From Alphaproteobacteria bacterium (lineage in GTDB: Bacteria; Pseudomonadota; Alphaproteobacteria; Micavibrionales; Micavibrionaceae), in contig JAMASZ010000014.1 in NCBI GenBank assembly GCA_023301585.1, positions 1-42,875 of the forward strand: a stretch of 42,875 nt of DNA. The letters are read 5' to 3'. This document shows, piece after piece, positions 4,700 through 40,157 of the stretch. Positions within the stretch are counted from its first letter, which is position 1. Each line of letters begins with the position of its first letter. The position numbers and the translations under genes are program-made. Under the pieces are notes generated by a model, which was not told the DNA's origin, made no database searches, and was given only the letters and a program-made list of their open reading frames with translations.

Positions 4700-6504
4700 T
4701 GGATGGTACTGGTAATGTACTAGATGCACAATGGATGCAAGTCAGAGACCATAAGGATCTCATTGCTTCTTACATAACAGAGCGCTGGACCCAGTTCTTC
4801 CACAGCGAGGAACGATCCAAGTGGAGAAAAGAGGCGAGAGAGGTACGTGACTTCCGGTACGCTACAGACACACGTAGCACCAGTAACAGTACCAACTCAC
4901 TAAGCCACAGTACTCACCTACCTAAGATTACACAGGTAGCTGATACACTAGAGGCTCACTATTCGGATGCTATGTTCCCACACAGTCGGTGGCTACAGTT
5001 CATAGCTGGGGACCAGAAGGCCAACACTGATACTAACCGTAGGCTCATTGAGACCTACATCCACTCTCGTCATACTCTATCAGGGTATGAGAAAGAGATG
5101 GCCCTATTGATTAGGGACTGGGTAGATGAGGGCAACTGTTTTGTTGAGGTACTATGGAAGTCCAAGACAGCGGGTGATGACAATGGTATTCTACGTAAGG
5201 CGTTTGTAGGGCCACAGATACGGAGATTAGATCCTCGTAGGATAGCATTCAATACCAAAGCTAACTCCTTCCATGATAGCTGGAAGATAGTACAGTCTAT
5301 TAAGACTAGGGGAGACATAGCACAGGACATACTCGATGAGTCACTGAGCGAGAAGTACCGTACTGTCCTCATGGAGGTGGAACAGTTCAGAGGCTACGCC
5401 AGTCAGTACAGCACTGATCTAGGTGAGTGGGGGGATGAGGAATACTCAGGCTTCGGTACTAACTCTAGCTACTTTGGAGATGGAGATGCTGTAGAGCTAC
5501 TCACTTTCTATGGTAGTATCTATGACACAGACTCACAGGAGATGCACCTCAATAAGAAGATTGTTGTAGTGGATCGTAAGTGGGTACTGATGAACGAGAG
5601 TGTAGAGACATGGGACGGTAAGCCCCACATCTACCATAGTGCATGGAGAGAGAAACCAAACACACTCCTCGGTATGGGTCCGTTACAGAACCTAACCGGT
5701 ATGCAGTATATGATTAACCACCTACAGAATACTAAGGCTGATGCCTTTGATAAGATGGTTAGCCCGGATAGATTGTTCTCTAACATAGAGGATGCCAAAA
5801 GACAGATAGATGGTAGTACCCACTTCTATGCACATGATGGAGGTAAGGTAACTAACATCCTTCCCGATACTACTATACTTAACGCTGACTTCCAGCTCAA
5901 TGAACTTGAGAGGAAGATGGAAGAGTATGCCGGGGTACCCCCTGAAGCTTTTGGCTTTAAGACTCCCGGTGAGCAGACTAAGTTTGAAGTATCAGAAAGA
6001 ATCAACGGAGCAGCTAGACTGTTCCAGAATAGAATCAAGAAGTTTGAGAGAGAGGTGATCGAACCCTCTGTCAATGCTGAGCTTGAGTTAGCGAAGGTGC
6101 ATCTCGATAATAACTTACAGGTGCTAGCCTCCCGACAGGAGGGTGATGTCTTTGAGACGATAACACCAGAGCTAATCAGGAACCAAGGTACACTCATGGC
6201 TAAGGGAGCACAGCACTACGCTCAACAGGCTAGGATGGTACAGGAACTCAGTAACTTCATGCAAGTGCTAGCGCAAGATCCAGAGGTGAGGATTCACTTC
6301 CCACCTAAGAAGATTGCTATGGCATTTAACTCACTACTCGGCGGGTTCCATCAGAAGGATGGTATCTACGAAGAGTACGGACGGTTGGTGGAGCAGGTCG
6401 AAGCCCAGCAATACCAACAAGCTGCTGCTAGCATGGTAGATCAAGCCAGCATAGCTCAGCAACAACTCGATGACCCCGAGGGCTTAGGCCCACAACAACC
6501 GTAA
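4699..6504 (+). CDS. Portal (head-to-tail connector) protein
   Basis: 601 aa, position between terminase and scaffold; GMGPLQNLTGMQYMINHLQNTKADAFDKM and GVPPEAFGFKTPGEQTKFEV are characteristic of podoviral portal proteins. Confidence 0.9.
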   Translation: MDGTGNVLDAQWMQVRDHKDLIASYITERWTQFFHSEERSKWRKEAREVRDFRYATDTRSTSNSTNSLSHSTHLPKITQVADTLEAHYSDAMFPHSRWLQFIAGDQKANTDTNRRLIETYIHSRHTLSGYEKEMALLIRDWVDEGNCFVEVLWKSKTAGDDNGILRKAFVGPQIRRLDPRRIAFNTKANSFHDSWKIVQSIKTRGDIAQDILDESLSEKYRTVLMEVEQFRGYASQYSTDLGEWGDEEYSGFGTNSSYFGDGDAVELLTFYGSIYDTDSQEMHLNKKIVVVDRKWVLMNESVETWDGKPHIYHSAWREKPNTLLGMGPLQNLTGMQYMINHLQNTKADAFDKMVSPDRLFSNIEDAKRQIDGSTHFYAHDGGKVTNILPDTTILNADFQLNELERKMEEYAGVPPEAFGFKTPGEQTKFEVSERINGAARLFQNRIKKFEREVIEPSVNAELELAKVHLDNNLQVLASRQEGDVFETITPELIRNQGTLMAKGAQHYAQQARMVQELSNFMQVLAQDPEVRIHFPPKKIAMAFNSLLGGFHQKDGIYEEYGRLVEQVEAQQYQQAAASMVDQASIAQQQLDDPEGLGPQQP

Positions 6505-6519
6505 GGAGACTCTTACACC

Positions 6520-7296
6520 GTGACCAATTTTGCACAAGCAGCAGCAGACCAAGCAGCAGCAAATACCCCTCCTGCACAGGAGACGTTTCAAGAGGCAGCA
6601 TCGACCCATGCTCCTACCCCTCAGATCGCTACTCCCCTAGACAATGGGGCTATTGTAGTTGGTGGTAAGATGTACCATCCAGAGGCAGCCGCGAAGAAGA
6701 TAGAGAATGCTGACACGCATATCACTACCCTCGAACGGGAGAATGCCGAAAAGGACGCCACAACATTAAAGTTGTTGGAGAGAATTGAGGCGCTAGAAAA
6801 GGATCGAAATACTACAGATGCAATTGACAGGTTGGTAGCAGCACAGCCCATCGTACCAGCTACCCCAGCTCCAGAACCTCTTCCTACACAGGAGGTCAGT
6901 AAGGAGGAACTTGTACAGGCAGCAGTAGATTCGATTAAAGGTGAACAGGTAGCACAGAAGCAATCAGCTAACCTCGACGCCTGTATAGCAGAAGCACAGA
7001 CTGCGTTTGGTGACGACTATGGTGTCAAAGTAGATGCCGCCGGAGCCAAGCATGGAATGAACTTCGATCAAATAATGGAGATGGCTCGTAATCAGCCGTC
7101 AGTATTCAAAGCTCTGTTTATACCAGAAGGTGCAGCAGCAGGCAAACCGGATACTACTCGGTCCTCAACTATTGGTGGGCTAGGTCAGGAAGGATTCGCT
7201 CCTCCTGCCAAACGAAAGTCCTACCTCAACATGAGTGCTAAAGAACGAAACGCAGAAATTACTCGGCGCATGAATGCGCTCTCTAACCCAGGATAA
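6520..7296 (+). CDS. Capsid assembly scaffolding protein
   Basis: Ala/Gln/Glu-rich, coiled-coil central part, located between portal and major capsid. Starts with GTG at 6520. Confidence 0.75.
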   Translation: MTNFAQAAADQAAANTPPAQETFQEAASTHAPTPQIATPLDNGAIVVGGKMYHPEAAAKKIENADTHITTLERENAEKDATTLKLLERIEALEKDRNTTDAIDRLVAAQPIVPATPAPEPLPTQEVSKEELVQAAVDSIKGEQVAQKQSANLDACIAEAQTAFGDDYGVKVDAAGAKHGMNFDQIMEMARNQPSVFKALFIPEGAAAGKPDTTRSSTIGGLGQEGFAPPAKRKSYLNMSAKERNAEITRRMNALSNPG

Positions 7297-7302
7297 TAAC
7301 TA

Positions 7303-7662
7303 ATGAAGACCTGTAATAGGTGTTTCAAAAGTAAGCCTACTGGGATGTTTTATAAGAGAGCAGTTTTGAAAGGCGGACATATGCTGCACTGCAAAGAGTG
7401 TTCAGAGAGTGACCAGAGGCTTATACGTTATCGTCTTGACGACAAGGCGTATGAAGCACTGCTACAATCTCAAGACTACTCCTGCGGTGTTTGTACTAAG
7501 CCACTCTCCGATGTAAAGAAAATTGCTATAGACCACTGCCATGAGACAGGGGACATAAGAGGAATCTTGTGCTCTCCTTGTAACGTAGCTATTGGTATGC
7601 TTGGAGATAATATCTCCGGGTTACAAAAGGCGATAAAGTACCTCAACTTAACGGAAACTTAA
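7303..7662 (+). CDS. Recombination endonuclease VII-type HNH endonuclease (probable free-standing homing endonuclease)
   Basis: CNRCF...CKEC...CGVC...IAIDHCHETGDIRGILCSPCNVAIGMLGDN: paired CxxC zinc ligands and the DHCHxTGxIRGxLCxxCN signature of the endonuclease VII family. Confidence 0.9.
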   Translation: MKTCNRCFKSKPTGMFYKRAVLKGGHMLHCKECSESDQRLIRYRLDDKAYEALLQSQDYSCGVCTKPLSDVKKIAIDHCHETGDIRGILCSPCNVAIGMLGDNISGLQKAIKYLNLTET

Positions 7663-7666
7663 TATT

Positions 7667-8674
7667 ATGGCGGGTAATACAACCTCCAATACACAAGCAC
7701 TACACCGACGTGATGTCTACTCTGACGTTATTCAAGACGAACTGACCGAGGGCTTTCTACCTGAAGGCCTAGCCCGTGATGTATCTGACTTCCCTGATGG
7801 CTCCAAGTTGCTCATCCCCACCTTTGGTGAGGTAGTAATCAAGGATGTCGTAGAAGATCAGGAGACTCCTGTTGATGCTATCGACACTGGCCGTATCGAG
7901 CTGGAGATCAGCGAGCACAAAGGTGCTGGTATCTCCATCACTGATGAGAACCGTGAGGATGGTTATTACATCCAACAGTTCGACAGTGCTGCTCCCGGCA
8001 AGATGCTTCATGGTCTCAAGGAAGTATATGAGACTGACCTGTTGATGACAGGTGAGGTAGGTCAGACACAAGGTGACGCTAACCAGATCAATGGTTTTGC
8101 TCATCGTTGGGTAGCCTCTGGTGCCAATGGTCAACTTGGTCTCTCCGATTTCTCTTACGCTAAGACAGCGTTCTTGAAAGCGAAGGCACCTGACATGGGT
8201 ATCATCGCAATCGTAGATCCAATCTCCGAGCTGTCCTTGAACCGACTGTCTAACATTGCTAACGTATCTAACAACCCTCACTTCGAGGGCATTGTAGAGA
8301 CTGGCTTTGCTAAGGGCATGAAGTTCATTAAGAACATCTTCGGTGTTGATGTCTACATGAGTAACCGCTTGCCACGTGTTGCCTCTGAGGTGATTGATAC
8401 TACTGCTAACGCAGGTATCCCCGCCCCTGACGGTGAGACTGGTGTACAAACCGGCGCTAAGACAGCAACTGATGCCTACGCGATGCAGTTTATGATCGTC
8501 GCTGATGACATGACTACTCCGTACATGAGTGCATGGCGTCGAACTCCCTCGGTAACATACTTCCGAGATGAGCCACGAAGACGTGACATCTACTACGTCA
8601 CAACTCGCTACGGTTTCGGTATGCAGCGTCCACAGACGTTGGCTACTTGCCTCGTATCTGCAACACAGTACTAA
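7667..8674 (+). CDS. Major capsid protein (HK97 fold, T7-supergroup type)
   Basis: 335 aa, position downstream of scaffold; N-terminal segment RRDVYSDVIQDELTEGFLPEGLARDVSDFPDGSKLLIPTFGE typical of podoviral capsid proteins. Confidence 0.88.
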   Translation: MAGNTTSNTQALHRRDVYSDVIQDELTEGFLPEGLARDVSDFPDGSKLLIPTFGEVVIKDVVEDQETPVDAIDTGRIELEISEHKGAGISITDENREDGYYIQQFDSAAPGKMLHGLKEVYETDLLMTGEVGQTQGDANQINGFAHRWVASGANGQLGLSDFSYAKTAFLKAKAPDMGIIAIVDPISELSLNRLSNIANVSNNPHFEGIVETGFAKGMKFIKNIFGVDVYMSNRLPRVASEVIDTTANAGIPAPDGETGVQTGAKTATDAYAMQFMIVADDMTTPYMSAWRRTPSVTYFRDEPRRRDIYYVTTRYGFGMQRPQTLATCLVSATQY

Positions 8675-24154: not shown

Positions 24155-24393
24155 GTGACCTTAGCTCGGAACCCACGGATATTGTGGAGTGCAGTGTTGT
24201 ATGTTGCCAACATACGTCCGGCTTTCTTTGAGGTACTACAGATCCATATACTCATATGAGCGGTGATACGGCCAATAAGATACTCACGGTACTCTGCCGC
24301 CTGTTGCCAATAGGCCAATGCCTGAGCATCTTCCCACCCCTTAGTCGTAGCATAGTTCTTATACTCATAAGGCAAGTCTTCATACGTCATCAC
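24151..24393 (-). CDS. Hypothetical protein (80 aa)
   Basis: Coupled to both neighbours by short overlaps on the same strand. Confidence 0.5.
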   Translation of the reverse strand: MMTYEDLPYEYKNYATTKGWEDAQALAYWQQAAEYREYLIGRITAHMSIWICSTSKKAGRMLATYNTALHNIRGFRAKVT

Positions 24394-24691
24394 GTCTCTC
24401 CTGATAGGCCATCCACATCATTGCATTACAAGCGACATGAGCCATATGAGATTGTCCTGACTCATCATCGACAAGATCACCACTTGCCACAGCAAAAGCA
24501 TGGCGTAGTAGGCTAGCCACAATGTCATGCTGAAACTGGTCATGAGACTCTGTGTTAATAGAGTTCTTCCAGTTGTCACGGCTGTACTTAGTTGCACCAT
24601 ACTCCATCACCTTAGCTATACCATCCCGTACTTCTTCCTCTAAGTAGGTGTGGTCAGGTTTACCTTCGTTGTATCGTAAGGCCTTACTCAT
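24380..24691 (-). CDS. dATP/dGTP diphosphohydrolase-like protein (DUF5664-type)
   Basis: MSKALRYNEGKPDHTYLEEEVRDGIAKVMEYGATKYSRDNWKN...LLRHAFAVASGDLVDDESGQSHMAHVACNAMMWM: RYNEGKxD / GAxKYxRxNW / DxESGxxHxxHVxxNAxM pattern of this phage family. Confidence 0.75.
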   Translation of the reverse strand: MSKALRYNEGKPDHTYLEEEVRDGIAKVMEYGATKYSRDNWKNSINTESHDQFQHDIVASLLRHAFAVASGDLVDDESGQSHMAHVACNAMMWMAYQERRDDV

Positions 24692-24926
24692 CAAGCTTCT
24701 CCACTCTAAAGACACTACCGTAGTCTTCCTTAAAGGAACGGAACCACCGTGCTAGTCCGTTGGGCTTAACTTGCTGAATACCCACCTCCACCATATCCCT
24801 GCACTCCCGAAGGAAATCTAGTTCCTCCATCGAGACTATAGCCAATTCCTCCATAGGGTAATGAAGTCTAGCCCTCGCAACTGCTCGTTTCAACTCGTTG
24901 GTAGTTTGAAATATGAACGCACTCAT
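24684..24926 (-). CDS. Hypothetical protein (80 aa)
   Basis: Same-strand ORF coupled to neighbours by short overlaps. Confidence 0.5.
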   Translation of the reverse strand: MSAFIFQTTNELKRAVARARLHYPMEELAIVSMEELDFLRECRDMVEVGIQQVKPNGLARWFRSFKEDYGSVFRVEKLDE

Positions 24927-31290: not shown

Positions 31291-31559
31291 TATACCCTCC
31301 GGTTATCGGGACACTTAGCTGGGCCACCAGTAGCACGACGTACTGCCGCAGGCTGTAGAGATGACACGATACCTTCCGACACAAGGACAAGGGATGGTTC
31401 ATCAAAGGATTCAGTAGCAGGTATCGCTCCCGTATCCCCAACCTTGGGCTGTAGTGAGATACGATCACAGCCATGCAAGTAAGTGTAACGACAGATAGCT
31501 ATACCTGTAAAGCCTGTAACAAAATCATTATACTCTTTACCTAGTATTACTTTAGACAT
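31290..31559 (-). CDS. Small phage protein with 'VTGFTGIAICRYTYLHGCDRISLQP' motif
   Basis: Resembles a widespread short phage protein type (VTGFxGIxxxRxxYxxGCxxxxxxP); AGGAGAT Shine-Dalgarno upstream. Confidence 0.6.
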   Translation of the reverse strand: MSKVILGKEYNDFVTGFTGIAICRYTYLHGCDRISLQPKVGDTGAIPATESFDEPSLVLVSEGIVSSLQPAAVRRATGGPAKCPDNRRV

Positions 31560-31911
31560 GTGTATCTCCTATGTTATTAACGATGAGCCATGATAAATTC
31601 GATAGGCTACAATTGCTGCGATCGCCATCCCTGTGCCAAGGACTATGACGCTCCGTAGGTGGTTGGCCCACGAAGGCTCGTAGTACGAGCTCGTTGACAT
31701 ACCTATAAACCTGTTTACTGCCCACGACAGGACGTACCCTGAGACTACCATTCCAAATACTATCAGTACTAGCACGATTGCCTCGGCTATCATACACTAC
31801 TCCTCTATTGTCTACTGACCATGATGTATCCTCTATAGGTCTTACTTGTTTCTTATACATTGATCTATCTATACTTAAATCATTAAGTAAGAAGTAATCA
31901 TTAGTATCCAT
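31552..31911 (-). CDS. HNH endonuclease (HNH_3-like homing endonuclease)
   Basis: YRYVNELVLRAFVGQPPTERHSPWHRDGDRSNCSLSNLSWL matches the HNH_3-type pattern (LVxxAF...HxDGDxxNxxxxNLxW). Confidence 0.75.
   Translation of the reverse strand: MDTNDYFLLNDLSIDRSMYKKQVRPIEDTSWSVDNRGVVYDSRGNRASTDSIWNGSLRVRPVVGSKQVYRYVNELVLRAFVGQPPTERHSPWHRDGDRSNCSLSNLSWLIVNNIGDTHV
31569..31793 (-). CDS. Holin-like two-TM protein nested out of frame inside the HNH gene
   Basis: MIAEAIVLVLIVFGMVVSGYVLSWAV...LRSVIVLGTGMAIAAIVAYRIYHGSSLIT: two TM segments, 74 aa; strong SD (AGAGGAG-TAGTGT-ATG on the minus strand); next to endolysin. Confidence 0.65.
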   Translation of the reverse strand: MIAEAIVLVLIVFGMVVSGYVLSWAVNRFIGMSTSSYYEPSWANHLRSVIVLGTGMAIAAIVAYRIYHGSSLIT

Positions 31912-31976: not shown

Positions 31977-32495
31977 CTAAACTAATTCCAGATGAGCATA
32001 GTCAGCACGGTTACTGAAGTACTTACCTGACCTCATGTTGTCAATACCTGCTTCCTTAGCGATAGCATAGGCAGCACCTATCATCTCATCGAAGCCTGCT
32101 ATGTCGTCCCAATCCAACGGATGCCTTGCAATATCAACGGCACGAGAAGGCATAACGTTATGATTAGAGTCAGGCCAAGGTAGCCCGTTGCCTCTGTTGT
32201 AGGCGTGTGTCTGTTGAGCTTCATTTCGGTATCCCCATATGATTGTCATGTCCCATATATCTGCTAGCTTGTTAGCTATGTATCGTAGGTCAGGCTCTAG
32301 CTCAGCCAGTCGTTGCCTACTTGCCAGCCCCCAAGGGTGGACAGGTAGGTAGTTGACCGAGTAGGGGTTGGTCTCAGGTGTCATCGGAGGGGCTATACTG
32401 TTTGCCGCCAACTCTGCAAGGTATAGTGACTCCCCCACTTGTACTCGTAGCCTATCAAGCTGGTCTCTGATCGAGCGGATTGACGCTAAGTCCAT
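31977..32495 (-). CDS. Endolysin, peptidase M15-type (L-alanyl-D-glutamate/D-Ala peptidase-like)
   Basis: IIWGYRNEAQQTHAYNRGNGLPWPDSNHNVMPSRAVDIARHPLDW...ADYAHLELV: SxH...AxD and HLE zinc-ligand layout of M15C lysins. Confidence 0.8.
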   Translation of the reverse strand: MDLASIRSIRDQLDRLRVQVGESLYLAELAANSIAPPMTPETNPYSVNYLPVHPWGLASRQRLAELEPDLRYIANKLADIWDMTIIWGYRNEAQQTHAYNRGNGLPWPDSNHNVMPSRAVDIARHPLDWDDIAGFDEMIGAAYAIAKEAGIDNMRSGKYFSNRADYAHLELV

Positions 32496-34131
32496 CTCTA
32501 TAGTCCTCTAATGTTATGGTACTAGGAGACAGACGACCTGTCTCGTTATCGTACTGCACAAGGGCAGCATCACCAGTCTTACCACAGAATCTATTCTTTA
32601 GTACTGTGATCTTACTGGTGTTACGTCGTATCAAGTCAGGGTCTTGTTGGTTACGACTCAGTGCATACACTCCATGTGCTAGCTGTGCTATGCTGCCTGA
32701 GCCACGTAAGTTAGCAAGGCTAGGGGTTGCCCCTTCCTCGAAAGACTTAGACTGTTGTGACCTGTTAAGATGAGACACAAGACTAATGTGTATCTGTAAC
32801 TCCTCAGTCAATCGCTTGAGTCGAGTCATCAGTACATCAATGTTCTTTCTCTCATCACCATCGGTAGCTGTCTCACTAACTAGTATTGATAGGTGATCCA
32901 CGACGATGTACTCACATCCCATTCCTGACGCCAAGTACCGTAGCTTTTGTATGAGCCTTGATTCTTCAACACTTCCCCAGTGATCGACACAGACAAGGTT
33001 GTCGTTGGCGTTCGCTGCCTCCCAGTATCCTCGAAGGTCATCGTCACTGACACTTGATCTGACTTCAGGTAGGTGGAGTGGTAAGTTTGCGCAGATAGAC
33101 ATTTGGCCGAGTATAGTCGTAGTAAGATTCTCTTCAAGAGCCAGCACTCCAACCTTCGTATCATGTTGTATACTCCAATGGTGTATTAGTTCACGCATCA
33201 CTGCGCTCTTGCCCATCCCAGTACCACTGGTCCAGACATCAAGCTCACCCTTACGTGAGCCATAGGACATGGTGTTAAGATCCTCCCAAGGGAAGGGGAT
33301 ACCTGCTGTGTGCTCATTATGGTGTTCCTCAAGCACAGCATCCCATGTATCAGAGCCTAGCACCACACCATCAGCCATTACAGCACGAGCTGACATGAGA
33401 GAGGAGAAGAACTCCTTGTCCTGTCCCTCAGTGAGGCAATCATTAGCATCCTTGCAGGGTAGCATGGCTCGCTTACACTTCTCTCTACCGAACAGGCCAG
33501 CCAACATCTCTGCTGCCTCATCTCCCGGATCATCCATGTCAACCGCAATGATGATTGTCTCGAATGATGAGAGAAACTCCTGACTGGTGGTGGTTAACTT
33601 AGACTTAGCACCATTAGGTAGTGATACAACACGGTAGTCCTTGCCATTCATAGCAAGCATTTGCTTGGCAGCTACCGCATCGAACTCACCTTCCACTATG
33701 ATACATAGCTTACGTCCACCGTCAAGGTGCATACCGAACAGGTCACTGTCCTTACCATCGCCCTTAGAACTGAACCTCTTCTGTGTCAGGTCAGCTATCT
33801 TCCAGCCCACCTGTCTGCCCTGCTTATAGCGAGGCCACCATACTGCTCGCTGTTCACGGGTAGCAGTGTCGTACTCAATGACACCACCGTATAGCTCGAC
33901 CATGCTACGACTAAGGCCACGACTTGGGATGTCAGCAGCCTCTAGTCCATCAGGTGTATCTCCTGACATGTCTTCCTCCTCACGTTCCTCACCATCAGGT
34001 GAGCGGTAGTACTCACATCGGTTACAGTAGCCACCCCCATCAGCGAAGATCATAAGATGGTCGCCAGTGCTGTCACGTCCACGCTCTCTACACTGAGGGC
34101 ATGGCTCGTTGCCTACTACGCGGCCTGTCAT
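32455..34131 (-). CDS. DNA primase-helicase (T7 gp4-like)
   Basis: Zinc-binding CPQC...CNRC, TOPRIM LCIIVEGEFDAVAAKQML...IIIAVDMDDPG, Walker A TSGTGMGKSAVM, Walker B EYIVVDHLSIL, SHLNR motif. Confidence 0.93.
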   Translation of the reverse strand: MTGRVVGNEPCPQCRERGRDSTGDHLMIFADGGGYCNRCEYYRSPDGEEREEEDMSGDTPDGLEAADIPSRGLSRSMVELYGGVIEYDTATREQRAVWWPRYKQGRQVGWKIADLTQKRFSSKGDGKDSDLFGMHLDGGRKLCIIVEGEFDAVAAKQMLAMNGKDYRVVSLPNGAKSKLTTTSQEFLSSFETIIIAVDMDDPGDEAAEMLAGLFGREKCKRAMLPCKDANDCLTEGQDKEFFSSLMSARAVMADGVVLGSDTWDAVLEEHHNEHTAGIPFPWEDLNTMSYGSRKGELDVWTSGTGMGKSAVMRELIHHWSIQHDTKVGVLALEENLTTTILGQMSICANLPLHLPEVRSSVSDDDLRGYWEAANANDNLVCVDHWGSVEESRLIQKLRYLASGMGCEYIVVDHLSILVSETATDGDERKNIDVLMTRLKRLTEELQIHISLVSHLNRSQQSKSFEEGATPSLANLRGSGSIAQLAHGVYALSRNQQDPDLIRRNTSKITVLKNRFCGKTGDAALVQYDNETGRLSPSTITLEDYRDGLSVNPLDQRPA

Positions 34132-34301
34132 GAGGTTACTTCAACTTCATCCAACTCCTCTCTGAGTCCGGCAGCATATAGCGCCTCGTTAAGAAGCTGT
34201 AGATCCTGTACAGCTTCTTCTAACCGTTGTTTTTTTAAAGCTACTTGTTCAATTGTCTTACAGTCCCACATTAAGTCAAATATATATGGTAGTTTATTCA
34301 T
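34128..34301 (-). CDS. Small hypothetical protein (57 aa)
   Basis: MNKLPYIFDLMWDCKTIEQVALKKQRLEEAVQDLQLLNEALYAAGLREELDEVEVTS; short coupled overlaps at both ends. Confidence 0.5.
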   Translation of the reverse strand: MNKLPYIFDLMWDCKTIEQVALKKQRLEEAVQDLQLLNEALYAAGLREELDEVEVTS

Positions 34302-34489
34302 TGTCTTGGTTCAATGGTAACATAGTCTCCTACTACCACGCTCTTGTGTGTTACTACCTTACGCCCGGTATCATTGGCTGCACCACATACTGAACTGAGT
34401 GTGGTCCAGCTTAGCTTCATCCGCTCATCCATATACAGGACGTTTCGATCCCATGTGATTGAGCCAGTCACCGCTGTCGATCCTGTCAT
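34298..34489 (-). CDS. Small hypothetical protein (63 aa)
   Basis: Stop overlaps the next ATG (ATGA-type coupling at 34298-34301). Confidence 0.45.
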   Translation of the reverse strand: MTGSTAVTGSITWDRNVLYMDERMKLSWTTLSSVCGAANDTGRKVVTHKSVVVGDYVTIEPRQ

Positions 34490-34817
34490 TGCCTCTCTCC
34501 TCTAAAATCCCCGGCATTGTGTACACTACAGCAGCACCGAAGGGTGTGTCGATCTCTTCACGATCATAGAACGAATGGGTCGTAGCATCAGGGTCATAAC
34601 CTTCTAGTCTGTTGCATCGTTGCTCAGCCTCAGGGCCACACTCGTACACCTCTACTAATACTGAGCCACCCTCTTCCTTCTCGATAGCAGGGAAGCCACC
34701 GAGTGACACCATGCTGTACCCCTTAAGCTGATGAGTACCTAACATCTTACTACCCATGAGGCAGGGGTTGTTACCCTGCCCCTTACGTAACGTACCATAC
34801 ACTGCAATGTTAATCAT
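34425..34817 (-). CDS. Gamma-glutamylcyclotransferase (GGCT/AIG2)-like protein
   Basis: INIAVYGTLRKGQGN...GGFPAIEKEEGGSVLVEVYE...CNRLEGYDP...YDREEI: canonical GGCT-like YGTLRxG, FPAI, VEVYE, LEGY motifs. Confidence 0.85.
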   Translation of the reverse strand: MINIAVYGTLRKGQGNNPCLMGSKMLGTHQLKGYSMVSLGGFPAIEKEEGGSVLVEVYECGPEAEQRCNRLEGYDPDATTHSFYDREEIDTPFGAAVVYTMPGILEERGNDRIDSGDWLNHMGSKRPVYG

Positions 34818-34828
34818 ATTTATTATCC

Positions 34829-35041
34829 TTAGTCCAAGTAGTCAAGCGTGTTAAGATAATCTCGAAGAACACGCACCTGCTGTCGATTAAGTACGAGAGA
34901 GGCATCATCCAGAGAACAAGATATCCACGAGAAATCCGTTACTCCGCTGGGGTATGTCGTCACCTCAATATCACTGGCCTCGAATCTCTGTGTCGAAGGC
35001 CAGCTAGGTGTTTTTAAAACTACTGAATCACCCAGCCTCAT
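34829..35041 (-). CDS. Small hypothetical protein (about 70 aa)
   Basis: Re-started at ATG 35041 (MRLGDSVVLKTPSWPSTQ...), ATGA-coupled to the ATP-grasp stop; the track start (35107) lies deep in the upstream gene. Confidence 0.5.
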   Translation of the reverse strand: MRLGDSVVLKTPSWPSTQRFEASDIEVTTYPSGVTDFSWISCSLDDASLVLNRQQVRVLRDYLNTLDYLD

Positions 35042-35790
35042 AACATCTCTCCAATAGATACCATAGCAGCAGCCGTGAGCTCTGCCGAATACTCGTTCAT
35101 GCCCCATGCTGTGTTAGCTTCGATAACCACAGCCCTGTCCTCTCCACTGTTGTATGCCACATCATAGGCAAGTAGGTTCAGGCCACACTGCTCACTCAAC
35201 TGAGCACCTACTACCCGTATCACACAGCATACCGCAAGTGGTAGTAGCTCATGCTCCACCTGATAGGTGAAACCGTTAGCCAATGTACGTACCAGCAGGG
35301 CATCACGCTCAAGCTCAGTGTTAGGACGAAGACGCTTACTTGCTTTGTATACTACGCCAGTGACAGGGCTAAATACCACACGGTATTCACGATCCTTCTT
35401 GAAGTACTGTGTGTACAGTGGGGCATCAACTACCTGCTCTGCATTACGAGCGATGACGATACCCTCCCCACTGCGCCCATTGAGGACAGTCCGGCACACT
35501 ACCTTCTCCCCTACTTCCGACGCCCACTGTTTGGCAGTGACAATAGATGTGGTAGATTCAGGGCCAAGACCAAGCTGTGACCACGCTAGCTTATCGGATA
35601 CATGACGCACTCCCGATGGGTGATTGATCCACTTCATTCTATCAGCCCACGGTGGTGCTGTTCGACACCCCCATGAGGTAGCTACCCCTGCCTTGGGGTT
35701 GGACGTACCGTAGCGGAGCTTACAGCCTGCCTCTCGCAGCAGTCTTGCACTTGCTAGTCCCTTCATCCAAGGGAGAATGGTTGTACTCAT
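35038..35790 (-). CDS. ATP-grasp ligase
   Basis: VVCRTVLNGRSGEGIVIA (glycine-rich ATP loop), LYTQYFKKDREYRVVFSP, VYKASKRLR, LLAYDVAYN and VVIEANTAWGM (E-x-N metal site). Confidence 0.8.
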   Translation of the reverse strand: MSTTILPWMKGLASARLLREAGCKLRYGTSNPKAGVATSWGCRTAPPWADRMKWINHPSGVRHVSDKLAWSQLGLGPESTTSIVTAKQWASEVGEKVVCRTVLNGRSGEGIVIARNAEQVVDAPLYTQYFKKDREYRVVFSPVTGVVYKASKRLRPNTELERDALLVRTLANGFTYQVEHELLPLAVCCVIRVVGAQLSEQCGLNLLAYDVAYNSGEDRAVVIEANTAWGMNEYSAELTAAAMVSIGEML

Positions 35791-37007
35791 GCTTGCTTCC
35801 TTAGTTTCTGGTCACGTACTATAGAGATCAGCTTACCCTCTGCATCAATGTCAGCACGGAATACATCGAAGCACTGATGATGTATCTTGATGCGTCTATC
35901 GTCTACGCTCTCAAGGAATGACGCGTCTTCGATTGTTTTGTTACAGCAGGCACATTGGTAGCTGAGGAAAGCCAGCTCTGCCCACTCTCCCACGATGCCC
36001 ATTGCTTTCTCCTCTGCCGTGACTCCCTGACCTCGGAAGCCCACGCCCTTTTGAAACGCAACACTGCTGTCCTTAATCTTGCCAGTAACCCTACCGGAGG
36101 GCTTGTACGAAGGGATCGGTAACGTCGTGCCCTTCGTCGAGGTCGATGTCGAGGCTGTCGTCCCACTCTGTCCAGTCGGTGACGTTGTAGTTCCCTTTGC
36201 TGTTGCCGAGGAACTGCTCTTGGATGAGGAATTCGTGGTAGCGGCGCTGTGATAGGTAGTCTGCTTGCCACCCTTGGCAGACTTCCCCTTTGGGTAGGAC
36301 TTGACTGCCCTATTTAATACACGGTCAACACGTACCTTGCCATCTGTAATCTCATACAGTGTGTTGATATTGAATGCCTTGATCTCAGTGTGTTGAATAC
36401 CGCACTTGGTCAGCATCCACTGCAACATGCCAGCCTCGCTTGCATAGTACACTCGGTTGCTTGACTTACTCTCTGCATAGTGCAAGGGACGTTCAGCATT
36501 ACGATACACAAAGACTCGTTGCTCATCAATCTCTGCCCATACCAATGCCGCAGCACCGTACAGATTAGAGATAGCCCAGTCTATACCTCGTGCTGAGATG
36601 GCACGGTACAGACCACGGCTATCCACATCACATGTCTTGCTTACTTGCAAGTCACCACGCCAGTCACCCACTAGGGTGCCATTGTGTACACCAATGATGT
36701 TACCTTCAATGAATGGGTGTGCTGTGTCATCGTTGATCTTACCGACAGTAGCAGCACGATTATGTCCAATGACTGAGTGTGTCTGATTACCCATGTTCCA
36801 CTCAGGATTCCATACATCATTAACCATCGTTGCCCCATTGACTGCCTTCTTCAGGTAGGTAGTAGGGTTGACTGGGTTATTGGTGAGGAATACGAAGCCA
36901 GTAGCATCGAGTCCTCGTACTGAACCGGCGATGGTGCAGTGCTTGATGAACTTGTCATCCGCTTGAGTGGTGATGAACTCACTCGTCATTCCAAATATGC
37001 CACACAT
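35787..37007 (-). CDS. Class II (Ntn) glutamine amidotransferase with Ser/Thr-rich linker and C-terminal CxxC/HxxC module
   Basis: MCGIFGMTSEF (catalytic Cys2), IGHNRAATVGKINDDTAHPF, IIGVHNGTLVGDW, VDSRGLYRAI, GAAALVWAE; then linker NSSSKSSSSATAKGTTTSPTG and YQCACCNKTIE...IKIHHQCFD. Confidence 0.92.
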   Translation of the reverse strand: MCGIFGMTSEFITTQADDKFIKHCTIAGSVRGLDATGFVFLTNNPVNPTTYLKKAVNGATMVNDVWNPEWNMGNQTHSVIGHNRAATVGKINDDTAHPFIEGNIIGVHNGTLVGDWRGDLQVSKTCDVDSRGLYRAISARGIDWAISNLYGAAALVWAEIDEQRVFVYRNAERPLHYAESKSSNRVYYASEAGMLQWMLTKCGIQHTEIKAFNINTLYEITDGKVRVDRVLNRAVKSYPKGKSAKGGKQTTYHSAATTNSSSKSSSSATAKGTTTSPTGQSGTTASTSTSTKGTTLPIPSYKPSGRVTGKIKDSSVAFQKGVGFRGQGVTAEEKAMGIVGEWAELAFLSYQCACCNKTIEDASFLESVDDRRIKIHHQCFDVFRADIDAEGKLISIVRDQKLRKQA

Positions 37008-37008
37008 A

Positions 37009-37746
37009 TTACTCTCCTACCATTGAATTGTGAAGGTTATACATACCCTGTACCCACTCTATCTCATTAGTTAGAGAGGAGTCAAAGCCTGTCCATACAT
37101 CCCGTGCTCCGTTCTGAGCATTGGGGCCAACACCACTAGCCCTGTTGTATATAGCGGTGATCTTATCAAGGATCGCATCCATCTGTGTTGCATCTACAAT
37201 AGGGGAGAAGTGCCGTAACTCTATCGTACCCAAGTTATCAAGAGGCATGGTGTTAATGCTCATGTACTTGGTGTTGCTGCTGAACAGTTGAGCTACGTCA
37301 CGTCTTCTCGGTAGCTCTTGCATACGTCCATTGATCCAGTCATTAGATCGTACTGCCCTGTTGATTACCGTCAAGGCAGGGGCAGGGGAGTACAGGGTGG
37401 GGCAGCAGAAGCTATTGCTATCTCTACCCTCTCCGTACTGATAGAACCAACGGTCATGTGCCAACAGCCCGAGCAACAGTGATACCGTAGCGTACCCATT
37501 CAACCCTGTTGTATCAACATGGATGTGGGTGGAGCAGCGGTGACTGATGCTGTAGTTGGTACCAAGGGAGGACAAGAGAGCACGCATCATAACCTTGGCT
37601 GTATTTGGCCGTTGCTTACCAGCCATGAGGAACTCAATCCCTCCATCCCCCCGTAAGGTGCCGTCATGTTCCGCTCGCCACCCTGTAGTAGCGTACCCTG
37701 AATTGGTATCTTCAAGCTCAAGCTCGATGCCTACGTTAAGCGACAT
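37009..37746 (-). CDS. Amidoligase (Amidoligase_2-like COOH-NH2 ligase)
   Basis: NVGIELELEDT, EHDGTLRGDGGIEFLMAGK, HRCSTHIHVDTTGLN, TIELRHFSP: glutamine synthetase-like carboxylate-amine ligase signature. Confidence 0.8.
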   Translation of the reverse strand: MSLNVGIELELEDTNSGYATTGWRAEHDGTLRGDGGIEFLMAGKQRPNTAKVMMRALLSSLGTNYSISHRCSTHIHVDTTGLNGYATVSLLLGLLAHDRWFYQYGEGRDSNSFCCPTLYSPAPALTVINRAVRSNDWINGRMQELPRRRDVAQLFSSNTKYMSINTMPLDNLGTIELRHFSPIVDATQMDAILDKITAIYNRASGVGPNAQNGARDVWTGFDSSLTNEIEWVQGMYNLHNSMVGE

Positions 37747-38332
37747 TGTGTCGTGCCTCCTCTGCCCATGTCAGGATGGTGGATTGGTTGGTTGTACTCT
37801 GTACCACTAGCCCATCTGCTAGACCATAGTAGTGGTCATCGTGGCGGCTAAGGAAAATACCACAACGAGGAGACAGGGCAACCGCTCGACGGTTCGCCAG
37901 CAATGTGCGGGTATCTTGTCGAGTGGCGGGGTATACATCATCATCGCTAAGGTAAGCAAGGATGAGGTCGTGGTCTACTGAGTTACCTCGTCTGCCTCCA
38001 AGTATGATCGGTATGCTGCCTCGATGGTATAACAGCGCCGACATGTTACCGCCATGAGGGGGTTTCTTATGTGATCGAGCACCCGACGGGCCAACAAATG
38101 CTAGCCTGTCTTGCCATACCACACATCGAGTACGTATCAGGCCACGCCATAGGATATCACCAACCTCGATGACACGACTTGATCCATTGCAGTTGACGAT
38201 AACCCTCTCAGCCTCGGTGAAGGTTTCGATACGCCCTATACGTACCCCGGACTTGCTTTGAAACTGTACGTATGTGTCGTTGAAGTACTGTCCCCAATCA
38301 GAGGAGGAAAACTCTCGTATTGATGGCTGCAT
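37736..38332 (-). CDS. Uncharacterised cassette protein (198 aa)
   Basis: Short overlaps with amidoligase genes on both sides; beta-rich; no recognised family. Confidence 0.6.
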   Translation of the reverse strand: MQPSIREFSSSDWGQYFNDTYVQFQSKSGVRIGRIETFTEAERVIVNCNGSSRVIEVGDILWRGLIRTRCVVWQDRLAFVGPSGARSHKKPPHGGNMSALLYHRGSIPIILGGRRGNSVDHDLILAYLSDDDVYPATRQDTRTLLANRRAVALSPRCGIFLSRHDDHYYGLADGLVVQSTTNQSTILTWAEEARHNVA

Positions 38333-39120
38333 TACCCAATCCTCCGAGCTATGGTATGGGACAGCGATATTGCTGCTTCCAAGTCACATGTATCAATAGC
38401 TGACTGGATCTCGTGAGCATAGGGGGCTACAAGCTCAGGGGGTAGGCTCAGGGCACGACGTACCATCTGGAATAGCTCACTGCCTGTGGTCTGTACCCAC
38501 GATGAGGCAGGCAGGGTGCGGTACTCAATACCATGTACCTCGGGAGTGAACTCCTTCATACGATACTCCCCCGCCCTGCCGTAGACAGACCGACGTGCCT
38601 GTATCTCTTCCTTGTGCTCTTGCTCCCAGTTAATCACCGAGTGCAGGCCAATGACAGCATCAAGACACAGTGCATGTGAAGGCATGATACTTTGATCGTA
38701 AGTACCGTCTGTTCCGATGTTGATGTGCAGCCCAGCATAACGCCTGTTGTCGGGGTACTCATCAGGCATAGGTACTGACCCTTCATACAGGTTCATGCTT
38801 GCACCACATCCAAGGACGCTAGCATACTCATCGCTTGCTAGCTCCTCATCAGTATACTCGGCTGATGGCACACACACCAGCTCAGCACCGGCAGGTAACA
38901 GAGACTGTGCCTGCTGTAGTGCTTGCCGATAGATATTATCCAGCTCCTCGCCAGTAGAGGCAGGGCGCATGGCTAGCTCGAACATGCTCGCATCCTTGTG
39001 GTACAGGTTGCCTTCAATATCGAGAGGTTCCTCCTTTGTGTATGGGAGGAATGAACATACAACAGGGCGAGCTAGTCGTTGGACTGTTAGCTCTACCTCT
39101 AATCCTATGCTAATACTCAT
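38332..39120 (-). CDS. phiEco32-like COOH-NH2 ligase type 2 (amidoligase)
   Basis: SIGLEVELTV, HKDASMFELAMRPASTGEEL, NRRYAGLHINIGTDG, HGIEYRTLPASSWV: GS-like ligase motif order, distinct from the neighbouring amidoligase. Confidence 0.75.
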   Translation of the reverse strand: MSISIGLEVELTVQRLARPVVCSFLPYTKEEPLDIEGNLYHKDASMFELAMRPASTGEELDNIYRQALQQAQSLLPAGAELVCVPSAEYTDEELASDEYASVLGCGASMNLYEGSVPMPDEYPDNRRYAGLHINIGTDGTYDQSIMPSHALCLDAVIGLHSVINWEQEHKEEIQARRSVYGRAGEYRMKEFTPEVHGIEYRTLPASSWVQTTGSELFQMVRRALSLPPELVAPYAHEIQSAIDTCDLEAAISLSHTIARRIG

Positions 39121-39129
39121 GTGATTCTC

Positions 39130-39978
39130 CTACTTACTTAGTGCGTTGACGATAGTGTCGTGCCATAGTTGGAAGTGCTCGGCGTTACCTTTGGTGTCCA
39201 TGTTGGGGCAGGGTACCGGTGTCTTGTGTATCCCTGCCTTACGCAGTGCCATCTCTGCTAGCTTGAGGGAAGCAGGCTCGAGGGGTGGTATCATGAAGGC
39301 GTCAGCTAATTTTGTGTCATAATCCTCATCGTAGATGTCTCCAAACCCATCCTTATATTCTCCAGAACCTGCTGAATTAAAAAGATGATGACGTAGACTA
39401 GGGTGAAGTGCTGCTACTCTGCGGATAGCCCACTGATCCATCAGACCCTCGAGGGTAGGAGACATACCGGCAAACATGGACTGATGGTGCCCACCAGTTG
39501 CCCGATAATACTTCGGACCATTAGGGCGCAACATACTTTTCGTCTGGTCCCAGGTGTACAGATGACAGCCGATGAAGGCACCGATACCGCTGTATCGTTC
39601 GGCACGATTGAAGAACCCGATACGGTCAGGCCGTTCAATAAAGATACGGAAGGGAGCAAGACGTGCATGTATCACCGCAGGGTGTGTGTCAGGCCGCATC
39701 ACTAACTTACCTGTCGCCATTGCCTCATCCCTGTCCTTTGCAGTGAGGAATATAGTGGCAGGGATATGTCGTGCTGCTCGGGTACATACCTCGATCATCA
39801 GATCCTTGGCCCATGCCGTACGTTTAGACGATGGTACATTTTCTATTCCCGGTATCATGCCAGCAAATGAGTAGGTGTACATGCTGACTGTGATTGGATC
39901 ACTAGATTCCTCGAACATGTGTGTGATGTTGGCTAGGCACCCCATTGTTCGATTGCCCCTGTCTGTATCGTAGCTCAT
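39130..39978 (-). CDS. Uncharacterised cassette protein (282 aa)
   Basis: Operon member; conserved-looking FNRAERYSGIGAFIGCHLYTWDQTK and RATGGHHQSMFAGMSPTLEGLMDQWAIRR; no confident family. Confidence 0.6.
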   Translation of the reverse strand: MSYDTDRGNRTMGCLANITHMFEESSDPITVSMYTYSFAGMIPGIENVPSSKRTAWAKDLMIEVCTRAARHIPATIFLTAKDRDEAMATGKLVMRPDTHPAVIHARLAPFRIFIERPDRIGFFNRAERYSGIGAFIGCHLYTWDQTKSMLRPNGPKYYRATGGHHQSMFAGMSPTLEGLMDQWAIRRVAALHPSLRHHLFNSAGSGEYKDGFGDIYDEDYDTKLADAFMIPPLEPASLKLAEMALRKAGIHKTPVPCPNMDTKGNAEHFQLWHDTIVNALSK

Positions 39979-40157
39979 GCCTTGTCCCCTTTCTTAGACA
40001 ACAGGCGGACCACCTCGTTAGGGTAGATAACGTGGGTCTTGCCTGTCTTACTGGTACCCTGACATGGGTGTGTCTTGCGGAGGACACCAACACCAGCACA
40101 GATGAAGAGTGTACCAACAGCGATGTCATTCATGGTCAGTGTGATTTGAGTTGTCAT
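39975..40157 (-). CDS. Small hypothetical protein (60 aa)
   Basis: ATGA-type overlap with 39978 start; MTTQITLTMNDIAVGTLFICAGVGVLRKTHPCQGTSKTGKTHVIYPNEVVRLLSKKGDKA. Confidence 0.55.
   Translation of the reverse strand: MTTQITLTMNDIAVGTLFICAGVGVLRKTHPCQGTSKTGKTHVIYPNEVVRLLSKKGDKA

What the first reader, a model, noticed from the sequence alone, without database searches (positions are those of the whole stretch)
34298..40157. Phage-encoded amide/peptide ligation cassette: GGCT + ATP-grasp + class II GATase + two amidoligases + two unknowns
Seen in sequence: eight or so tightly coupled minus-strand genes combine a GGCT-like protein (YGTLRKG/FPAI/LEGY), an ATP-grasp enzyme (GRSGEGI loop, EAN metal site), a class II glutamine amidotransferase (MCGIFG), an Amidoligase_2-like enzyme (GIELELE...DGTL...HIHVD...ELRHF) and a phiEco32-like COOH-NH2 ligase (GLEVELT...DASMFELAMRP...GLHINIG...IEYRTLP). 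Established knowledge: comparative genomics (Aravind and colleagues on amidoligases) predicted such ligases in phiEco32-like phages with ATP-grasp and GATase neighbours, but the product and substrate remain, to my knowledge, unknown. Inference: GATase supplies ammonia from glutamine, the ligases form amide or isopeptide bonds on carboxylates (host envelope, peptidoglycan, a small peptide, or virion/host proteins), and GGCT trims gamma-glutamyl/epsilon-type amide linkages. About 14% of the window is spent on this, which implies strong selection.
Basis: partly seen in the sequence, partly recalled or inferred. Interest (0 to 1): 0.87.

Follow-up and report, generated by a model that had tools for sequence, protein, structure and literature searches.

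The report
Phage gamma-glutamyl amide-ligase gene cassette
This phage carries a tightly packed set of genes for enzymes that make and cut amide bonds on small peptides; the same gene set is already known from many other phages, where it is suspected but never shown to alter the host cell wall, so this is a new, divergent example of a known puzzle rather than a new system.

Summary
Window 34298-40157 (minus strand) is a compact transcription unit encoding a GGCT-like protein (y), a RimK-type ATP-grasp ligase (P), a stand-alone class II GATase (G), an Amidoligase_2 (A), a phiEco32-like COOH-NH2 ligase (C) and two uncharacterised proteins (u, S). It sits directly upstream of the primase/helicase in a Zobellviridae-like podovirus contig. 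Active sites are intact. The cassette is not new: the literature calls it a "peptidoglycan modification cassette" (PMC5498523), and UFV-P2 has the same gene order. Function is untested. What I add: (1) 123 of 142 distinct loci carry all four core enzymes; 110 keep the order C-u-A. (2) 83 of these 123 also encode a Peptidase_C26 (gamma-glutamyl-hydrolase family); 113 carry C26 and/or GGCT, two unrelated gamma-glutamyl-cleaving folds that tend weakly to replace each other. (3) u and S are conserved families with confident models but no significant PDB match; S has an invariant Cys and Arg. (4) Most cassette GATases end in a zinc-ribbon-like motif. Best reading: a cytoplasmic, mid-infection gamma-glutamyl ligation/deglutamylation pathway whose target (cell-wall precursor, protein or small molecule) is unresolved. 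New member of a known kind.

The parts
39975..40157 (-). small ORF, 60 aa, first gene of the packed unit; no family
   Evidence: ATGA overlap with S
39130..39978 (-). S: 282 aa protein of a cassette-linked family with invariant Cys (window C14) and Arg (R111), mostly-conserved His (H165); no Pfam, no PDB fold match
   Evidence: held-out profile E=8.5e-5; family in 57 of 123 full cassettes, nearly always the first cassette gene; conserved residues; family model pLDDT 84.9, pTM 0.86, no PDB match
38332..39120 (-). C: phiEco32-like COOH-NH2 ligase (glutamine-synthetase-like amidoligase)
   Evidence: phrog_3815 E=8e-24; PF14395 19 bits, below cut-off; invariant E10, E48, H132, R187, K189, E199, R201
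37736..38332 (-). u: 198 aa protein lying between the two amidoligases; distant member of a conserved phage family (PHROG 11055/4877, unknown)
   Evidence: position and length match 15 other phages; held-out HMM: top window ORF E=0.008, 0.4 with a faster alignment; hhalign E=0.028, Prob 1.7 over the N-terminal D-x3-Y-x4-TYV stretch only: homology of the window copy is likely but weak
37009..37746 (-). A: Amidoligase_2
   Evidence: phrog_7469 E=1e-20; invariant E8, E10, E12, H74, H76, E176, R178
35787..37007 (-). G: class II glutamine amidotransferase (Ntn, Cys2) + Ser/Thr/Gly-rich linker + C-terminal CxxC...HxxC zinc-ribbon-like tail; no synthase domain
   Evidence: PF13522 E=2e-11, phrog_4736 E=4e-54; MCG start, R84, T87, H108-N109-G110, D129; tail motif in 106 of 134 cassette GATases
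35038..35790 (-). P: RimK-type ATP-grasp ligase
   Evidence: phrog_2599 E=9e-33; family profile matches alpha-L-glutamate ligases/RimK in the PDB, E=5e-11 to 2e-9; K67, R100, E135xR137, D210, E224xN226 invariant
34829..35041 (-). small ORF, 70 aa, overlapping P by 4 nt
34425..34817 (-). y: GGCT / AIG2-like gamma-glutamyl cyclotransferase
   Evidence: PF06094 E=1.2e-18, phrog_2520 E=2e-23; YGTLRKG and the LEGY glutamate conserved
34298..34432 (-). small ORF, 44 aa (listed as 63 aa from an upstream start)
34128..34301 (-). small ORF, 57 aa, coupled to the primase/helicase
32455..34131 (-). primase/helicase, the conserved downstream neighbour of the cassette (not part of it)
   Evidence: PF03796 E=3e-26; same neighbour in 124 of 159 loci

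Best explanation
The cassette encodes a cytoplasmic enzyme pathway, expressed in mid-infection together with the replication genes, that forms amide (most likely gamma-glutamyl isopeptide) bonds at ATP cost on a small peptide-like acceptor and then trims gamma-glutamyl groups from it. SHOWN: the genes, their intact active sites, their tightly packed arrangement, and their strong co-conservation in unrelated phage lineages. INFERRED: the GATase releases ammonia from glutamine; C and A (glutamine-synthetase-like folds) activate a glutamate carboxylate as acyl phosphate and join it to an amine or ammonia; the RimK-like ATP-grasp adds a further amino acid; u (modelled as SH3-like barrels) tethers C to A; GGCT, or Peptidase_C26 in other phages, removes gamma-glutamyl units, either to unmask the product or to recycle glutamate. 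Mid-infection timing is transferred from PaP3. My first-choice target is a peptidoglycan precursor, as earlier authors proposed (about 0.35), with an intracellular protein or a free small molecule as alternatives; the target is not shown by any data here.
For: Five enzyme families with intact catalytic residues. All four core enzymes in 123 of 142 distinct loci; C-u-A order in 110. In the two seed-biased samples separately: of 80 loci chosen by G, 69 have C, 77 A, 68 P, 66 u; of 80 chosen by C, 70 have G, 70 A, 68 P, 62 u. Two unrelated gamma-glutamyl-cleaving families, GGCT and Peptidase_C26 (Pfam E=1e-13 to 1e-18), are present singly or together in 113 of 123 full cassettes, and in 89 of 93 with at least 2 kb of flank on both sides; they are negatively associated (Fisher p=0.018 overall, 0.001 with flanks). 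ATP-grasp nearest solved relatives are RimK and alpha-L-glutamate ligases. PaP3 microarray places ORF32-48, which includes cassette genes 42-48, in the middle class peaking at 10-30 min (PMC4707531). SU10 mass spectrometry detected GATase, ATP-grasp and GGCT-like products and gp86 (the amidoligase gene in the GenBank record) (PMC4281155). Missense changes arose in both amidoligase gp22 and GATase gp23 of Bruynoghevirus FJK, in both evolved phages sequenced from a biofilm evolution experiment (PMC11450229).
Against: I found no report in which an enzyme of such a phage cassette was assayed. The C26/GGCT replacement weakens within each gene-order class (p=0.38 and 0.13), so shared ancestry explains part of it. 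Ten of 123 cassettes show neither enzyme. The window itself has GGCT but no C26. Mid- rather than early expression fits superinfection exclusion less well. The cassette is dispensable: ICP2, in the family nearest to this phage by terminase, has no component. Pfam matches for C and A are below their curated cut-offs.
Confidence: 0.5

Rival explanations
1. Published hypothesis: the enzymes add unusual peptide linkages to peptidoglycan side chains, altering the cell surface to exclude superinfecting phages.
For: Proposed for RIO-1-like, phiEco32 and LUZ24-like phages (PMC5498523; PMC10580990; PMC11945000). Peptidoglycan stems contain gamma-Glu and DAP amide chemistry (established knowledge). Missense changes in amidoligase and GATase arose under biofilm selection (PMC11450229).
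Against: No experiment found. The conserved ligases are ATP-dependent, so they would have to act on cytoplasmic precursors. Expression is with replication genes rather than earliest. GGCT and C26 families are known for L-gamma-glutamyl substrates, whereas peptidoglycan carries D-Glu (own knowledge).
Confidence: 0.35
2. Protein tagging: the RimK-like ligase and amidoligases add glutamyl or amide groups to host or virion proteins.
For: RimK-type ATP-grasp relatives modify ribosomal protein S6. Peptide tagging of proteins was proposed for the R2K ATP-grasp family in phages (PMC4431377). Cassette proteins were found in concentrated SU10 stocks.
Against: The R2K_2 Pfam model is not met (13 vs 26 bits). 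No conserved small substrate protein was identified in the neighbourhood survey. The SU10 preparation was not shown to be free of lysate proteins.
Confidence: 0.25
3. Nitrogen and glutamate recycling: G, GGCT and C26 break down glutamine and gamma-glutamyl compounds of the host to feed nucleotide synthesis; the ligases trap or store nitrogen.
For: Co-expression and adjacency with replication genes. Hydrolytic enzymes in nearly all cassettes. PMC5498523 also speaks of recycling host material.
Against: Three ATP-consuming ligases kept together in near-fixed order are hard to explain by breakdown alone. No conserved amidotransferase acceptor for nucleotides (purF, guaA type) was recognised among linked genes.
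Confidence: 0.2
4. DNA base hypermodification, with the GATase giving ammonia to a base-modifying pathway.
For: Adjacency to primase/helicase and mid-phase expression.
Against: None of the recurrent neighbours recognised in the survey is a base-modification enzyme such as QueC or an amidinotransferase (judged only on the families recognised); the ligases act on carboxylates.
Confidence: 0.05

Closest known systems
'Peptidoglycan modification cassette' of RIO-1-like podoviruses (PSA-HP1, RIO-1, CW02, PA11)
   Same: Same enzyme families (GGCT, GATase, COOH-NH2 ligase, Amidoligase_2, ATP-grasp), same position before primase/helicase, same family (Zobellviridae) by terminase.
   Different: In the window the GATase follows Amidoligase_2 (C-u-A-G-P-y), as in LUZ24/phiEco32-like phages, instead of G-C-u-A-P; protein identities are about 20-34%; no C26.
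LUZ24/PaP3/UFV-P2 (Bruynoghevirus) amidoligase cassette
   Same: Gene order COOH-NH2 ligase, ~190 aa unknown, Amidoligase_2, GATase, ATP-grasp, GGCT, primase/helicase is the same.
   Different: PaP3 has two upstream ~320 aa proteins where the window has one S protein, and a 72 aa ORF between G and P; no DNA-level similarity.
phiEco32 / SU10 (Kuravirus) cassette, predicted by Iyer et al. 2009
   Same: Same components and order (SU10).
   Different: Longer GATase and ATP-grasp with extensions; carried by a C3-morphotype phage.
PuuA/PuuD gamma-glutamylation and de-glutamylation; butirosin BtrJ/BtrG (own knowledge)
   Same: Logic of ATP-dependent gamma-glutamyl attachment followed by removal by a C26 hydrolase (PuuD) or a GGCT-family enzyme (BtrG).
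   Different: Not homologous as pathways; two amidoligases plus a class II GATase here; substrate unknown.
RimK / alpha-L-glutamate ligases
   Same: Nearest solved relatives of the ATP-grasp protein.
   Different: About 250 aa; embedded in an amidoligase cassette; acceptor unknown.

Membership tests
phage amidoligase ('peptidoglycan modification') cassette | phiEco32-like COOH-NH2 ligase with intact active site | tested here: met
   phrog_3815 8e-24; held-out 9e-41; residues
phage amidoligase ('peptidoglycan modification') cassette | Amidoligase_2 with intact active site | tested here: met
   phrog_7469 1e-20; held-out 3e-36; residues
phage amidoligase ('peptidoglycan modification') cassette | ATP-grasp, class II GATase and GGCT in the same unit | tested here: met
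phage amidoligase ('peptidoglycan modification') cassette | ~200 aa unknown protein u between the two amidoligases | tested here: inconclusive
   position and length met; sequence homology of the window copy weak (E=0.008 to 0.4)
phage amidoligase ('peptidoglycan modification') cassette | located next to primase/helicase | tested here: met
   window 32455-34131; 124 of 159 loci
phage amidoligase ('peptidoglycan modification') cassette | changes peptidoglycan or excludes superinfection | not testable with these tools
   no experiment found in the papers searched
Pfam PF14395 COOH-NH2_lig | curated score cut-off (25 bits) | tested here: not met
   19 bits; assignment rests on PHROGs, alignment and context
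Pfam PF12224 Amidoligase_2 | curated score cut-off (22 bits) | tested here: not met
   15 bits; assignment rests on PHROGs, alignment and context
R2K-clade ATP-grasp | PF18299 R2K_2 cut-off (26.2 bits) | tested here: not met
   13.4 bits; profile nearest RimK
Peptidase_C26 (gamma-glutamyl hydrolase family), in other cassettes only | PF07722 cut-off and Cys/His/Glu triad | tested here: met
   50-66 bits vs 20.5; Cys of [GI]CRG and HPE conserved; absent from the window

The most novel reading that the evidence does not exclude
The cassette makes a so far undescribed gamma-glutamyl-masked peptide or metabolite, in which glutamyl groups serve as a temporary handle and are later removed by GGCT or C26, assembled by a u-scaffolded C-A ligase complex and with a Cys-dependent step by S, a fold without a match in the PDB; its biological role would be something other than cell-wall superinfection exclusion.
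Probability: 0.25. Interest if true: 0.7.

Novelty: new member of a known kind. Interest (0 to 1): 0.42.

Why it matters
The cassette takes up about 14% of this contig and is kept by at least six phage groups (Bruynoghevirus, Kuravirus, Zobellviridae, Grimontviridae, Bjornvirus, Lahexavirus) in one of two main gene orders, so it must pay for itself, yet no one appears to have shown what it makes. The companion enzymes found here narrow the chemistry to something testable: gamma-glutamyl bonds made and removed. Two of its recurrent members, u and S, are uncharacterised families; if an activity were found it would explain one of the more widespread unexplained metabolic gene sets of podoviruses.

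Tried and rejected
A viral-contig scan with the single window ligase found no relative; only family alignments reached relatives. tblastn with window u and S against phages gave nothing; families were recovered only through position and profiles. Relatives of the window's MAG lack it. I considered an anti-phage defence system: no PADLOC match. I looked for gene fusions that would tell which ligase takes ammonia from the GATase: only one doubtful G-C case. PDB fold searches of u and S gave no significant match, so I do not name a fold for S and call the SH3-like reading of u weak. A claim that PaP3 orf49 belongs to the S family was not supported.
Full report
WHAT IS THERE. The window is contig C14 of a 2.73-Mb, 387-contig bacterial genome assembly, apparently a metagenome bin. 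It is a phage contig: the terminase is 40-41% identical to Salinivibrio phage CW02 and Vibrio phage ICP2, both Zobellviridae, with no DNA-level relative for 20000-42875 in the phage collection. The relatives of that genome which were searched lack the ligase; only the window's own copy was found, so the cassette is phage-borne.

The finding is confirmed. Reading the minus strand from 40157 down: a 60-aa ORF, S (282 aa), C (COOH-NH2 ligase), u (198 aa), A (Amidoligase_2), G (class II GATase), P (ATP-grasp), a 70-aa ORF, y (GGCT), two tiny ORFs and the primase/helicase. Spacing between neighbours is -11 to +11 nt. Pfam and PHROGs name each enzyme; for C and A the Pfam scores lie below the curated cut-offs and the assignment rests on PHROGs (8e-24, 1e-20) and on held-out profiles made from other phages (9e-41, 3e-36). 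Active-site columns are invariant in multi-phage alignments: GATase R84, T87, HNG and D129 with the MCG start; C E10, E48, H132, R187, K189, E199, R201; A E8/E10/E12, H74, H76, E176, R178; ATP-grasp K67, R100, ExR, D210, ExN; GGCT YGTL and the LEGY glutamate.

IT IS A KNOWN KIND. UFV-P2 shows the same order (PMC3890496). I read the cassette in PaP3, SU10, T2S2, QDWS535, SJSY21, CW02, BA6, RIO-1, CVT22, LAh_6, J3S, Klyazma, 1.293.O, RHph_N3_13 and Bjorn. PMC5498523 calls it a seven-gene 'peptidoglycan modification cassette' and lists RIO-1, phiEco32, 7-11, PA11, tf, MR299-2, LUZ24, PaP3 and CW02; PMC11945000 repeats the name for a LUZ24-like phage. The superinfection-exclusion idea is attributed by later papers to Iyer et al. 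2009; that paper was not available here. No experimental test was found in the library searched, which lacks most subscription journals.

HOW CONSERVED. IMG/VR scans with the GATase and COOH-NH2 ligase alignments gave 160 loci. With the GenBank loci and the window these collapse to 142 distinct loci: 123 have C, A, G and P; u is recognised in 111; the order C-u-A in 110. Because loci were chosen by G or C, the fair figures are the cross ones: of 80 chosen by G, 69 have C, 77 A, 68 P; of 80 chosen by C, 70 have G, 70 A, 68 P. The primase/helicase is a neighbour in 124 of 159 loci and DNA polymerase in 104. Two main orders exist: G-C-u-A-P and C-u-A-G-P; the window has the second although its terminase is Zobellviridae-like. 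ICP2, of that family, lacks every component, so the cassette is an accessory unit that can be gained or lost.

WHAT IS ADDED HERE. (1) Peptidase_C26, the family of gamma-glutamyl hydrolases, is a regular partner: 83 of 123 full cassettes by profile, with Pfam support for the four members tested. GGCT is in 73. Only 10 have neither, and 4 of 93 when at least 2 kb of flank is present on both sides. The two are negatively associated (p=0.018; 0.001 with flanks), but not significantly inside each gene-order class (p=0.38, 0.13), so part of this is ancestry. Since GGCT and C26 are unrelated folds that cleave the same kind of bond, the simplest reading is that the pathway creates gamma-glutamyl bonds that must be removed. 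(2) u is one family joining PHROGs 11055 and 4877 (both unknown); a representative folds with pLDDT 93; PDB matches are weak and local, to SH3-like, Tudor and PWWP barrels (best E 0.08), and the significant viral matches that carry a name include the equivalent proteins of CW02 and Bjorn and one from Vp_R1. The window copy is a distant member: top window ORF at E=0.008 with a careful alignment, 0.4 with a fast one, hhalign E=0.028 but Prob 1.7. (3) S is a family in 57 of 123 cassettes, nearly always the first gene, with invariant Cys and Arg in 43 sequences of 12% mean identity; the Cys lies between a strand and a helix in the model; no PDB fold match. (4) 106 of 134 cassette GATases end in a CxxC...CxxC-type motif; the window copy has CACC...HHQC.

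MECHANISM. Established chemistry of the families says that C and A make acyl phosphates and amides, P makes peptide or isopeptide bonds (nearest solved relatives RimK and alpha-L-glutamate ligases), and G frees ammonia from glutamine. Together with the two cleaving enzymes I commit to a cytoplasmic gamma-glutamyl ligation/deglutamylation pathway (0.5). The target is open: peptidoglycan precursor 0.35, protein 0.25, nitrogen recycling or other free metabolite 0.2, DNA 0.05. Timing data place the PaP3 cassette genes in the middle class with replication genes. SU10 mass spectrometry shows that several cassette products are made and are abundant enough to be seen in concentrated stocks. Missense changes in both amidoligase and GATase in the two evolved FJK phages sequenced suggest that these two proteins matter together; they do not say for what.

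VERDICT. Real, ordinary in kind, divergent in sequence, unsolved in function. The finding deserves attention as a way into a long-standing open question rather than as a discovery of a system.

Noticed in passing
window 7303-7662 (+): Endonuclease VII-like gene (PF02945, E=1e-22) between the genes at 6520-7296 and 7667-8674, which look scaffold-like and capsid-like by position; possibly a mobile HNH-type element.
   Followed up: no
window 31552-31911 (-): HNH_3 homing-type endonuclease near the DNA polymerase region; HNH genes also lie inside the cassette in UFV-P2 and Klyazma.
   Followed up: no
window 24380-24715 (-): dATP/dGTP diphosphohydrolase-like protein (PF18909, E=4e-21); possible dNTP pool or modified-purine function.
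   Followed up: no
L018 (ICP2) 33357-36230: In ICP2, which lacks the cassette, the region before the primase holds CobT/CobS-like genes instead.
   Followed up: no
L008 (RIO-1) 6264-7460: The RIO-1 COOH-NH2 ligase has an N-terminal extension of about 160 aa containing a 'VGDLVRI'-type stretch; by eye, small 'KVGDKVR' proteins also recur near cassettes.
   Followed up: partly
L189, L194: Contigs binned as Stahlbacteria and Aenigmatarchaeota carry a COOH-NH2 ligase with C26 and GGCT profile matches but without A, G or P; if the archaeal binning is right, a peptidoglycan target would be unlikely there.
   Followed up: no
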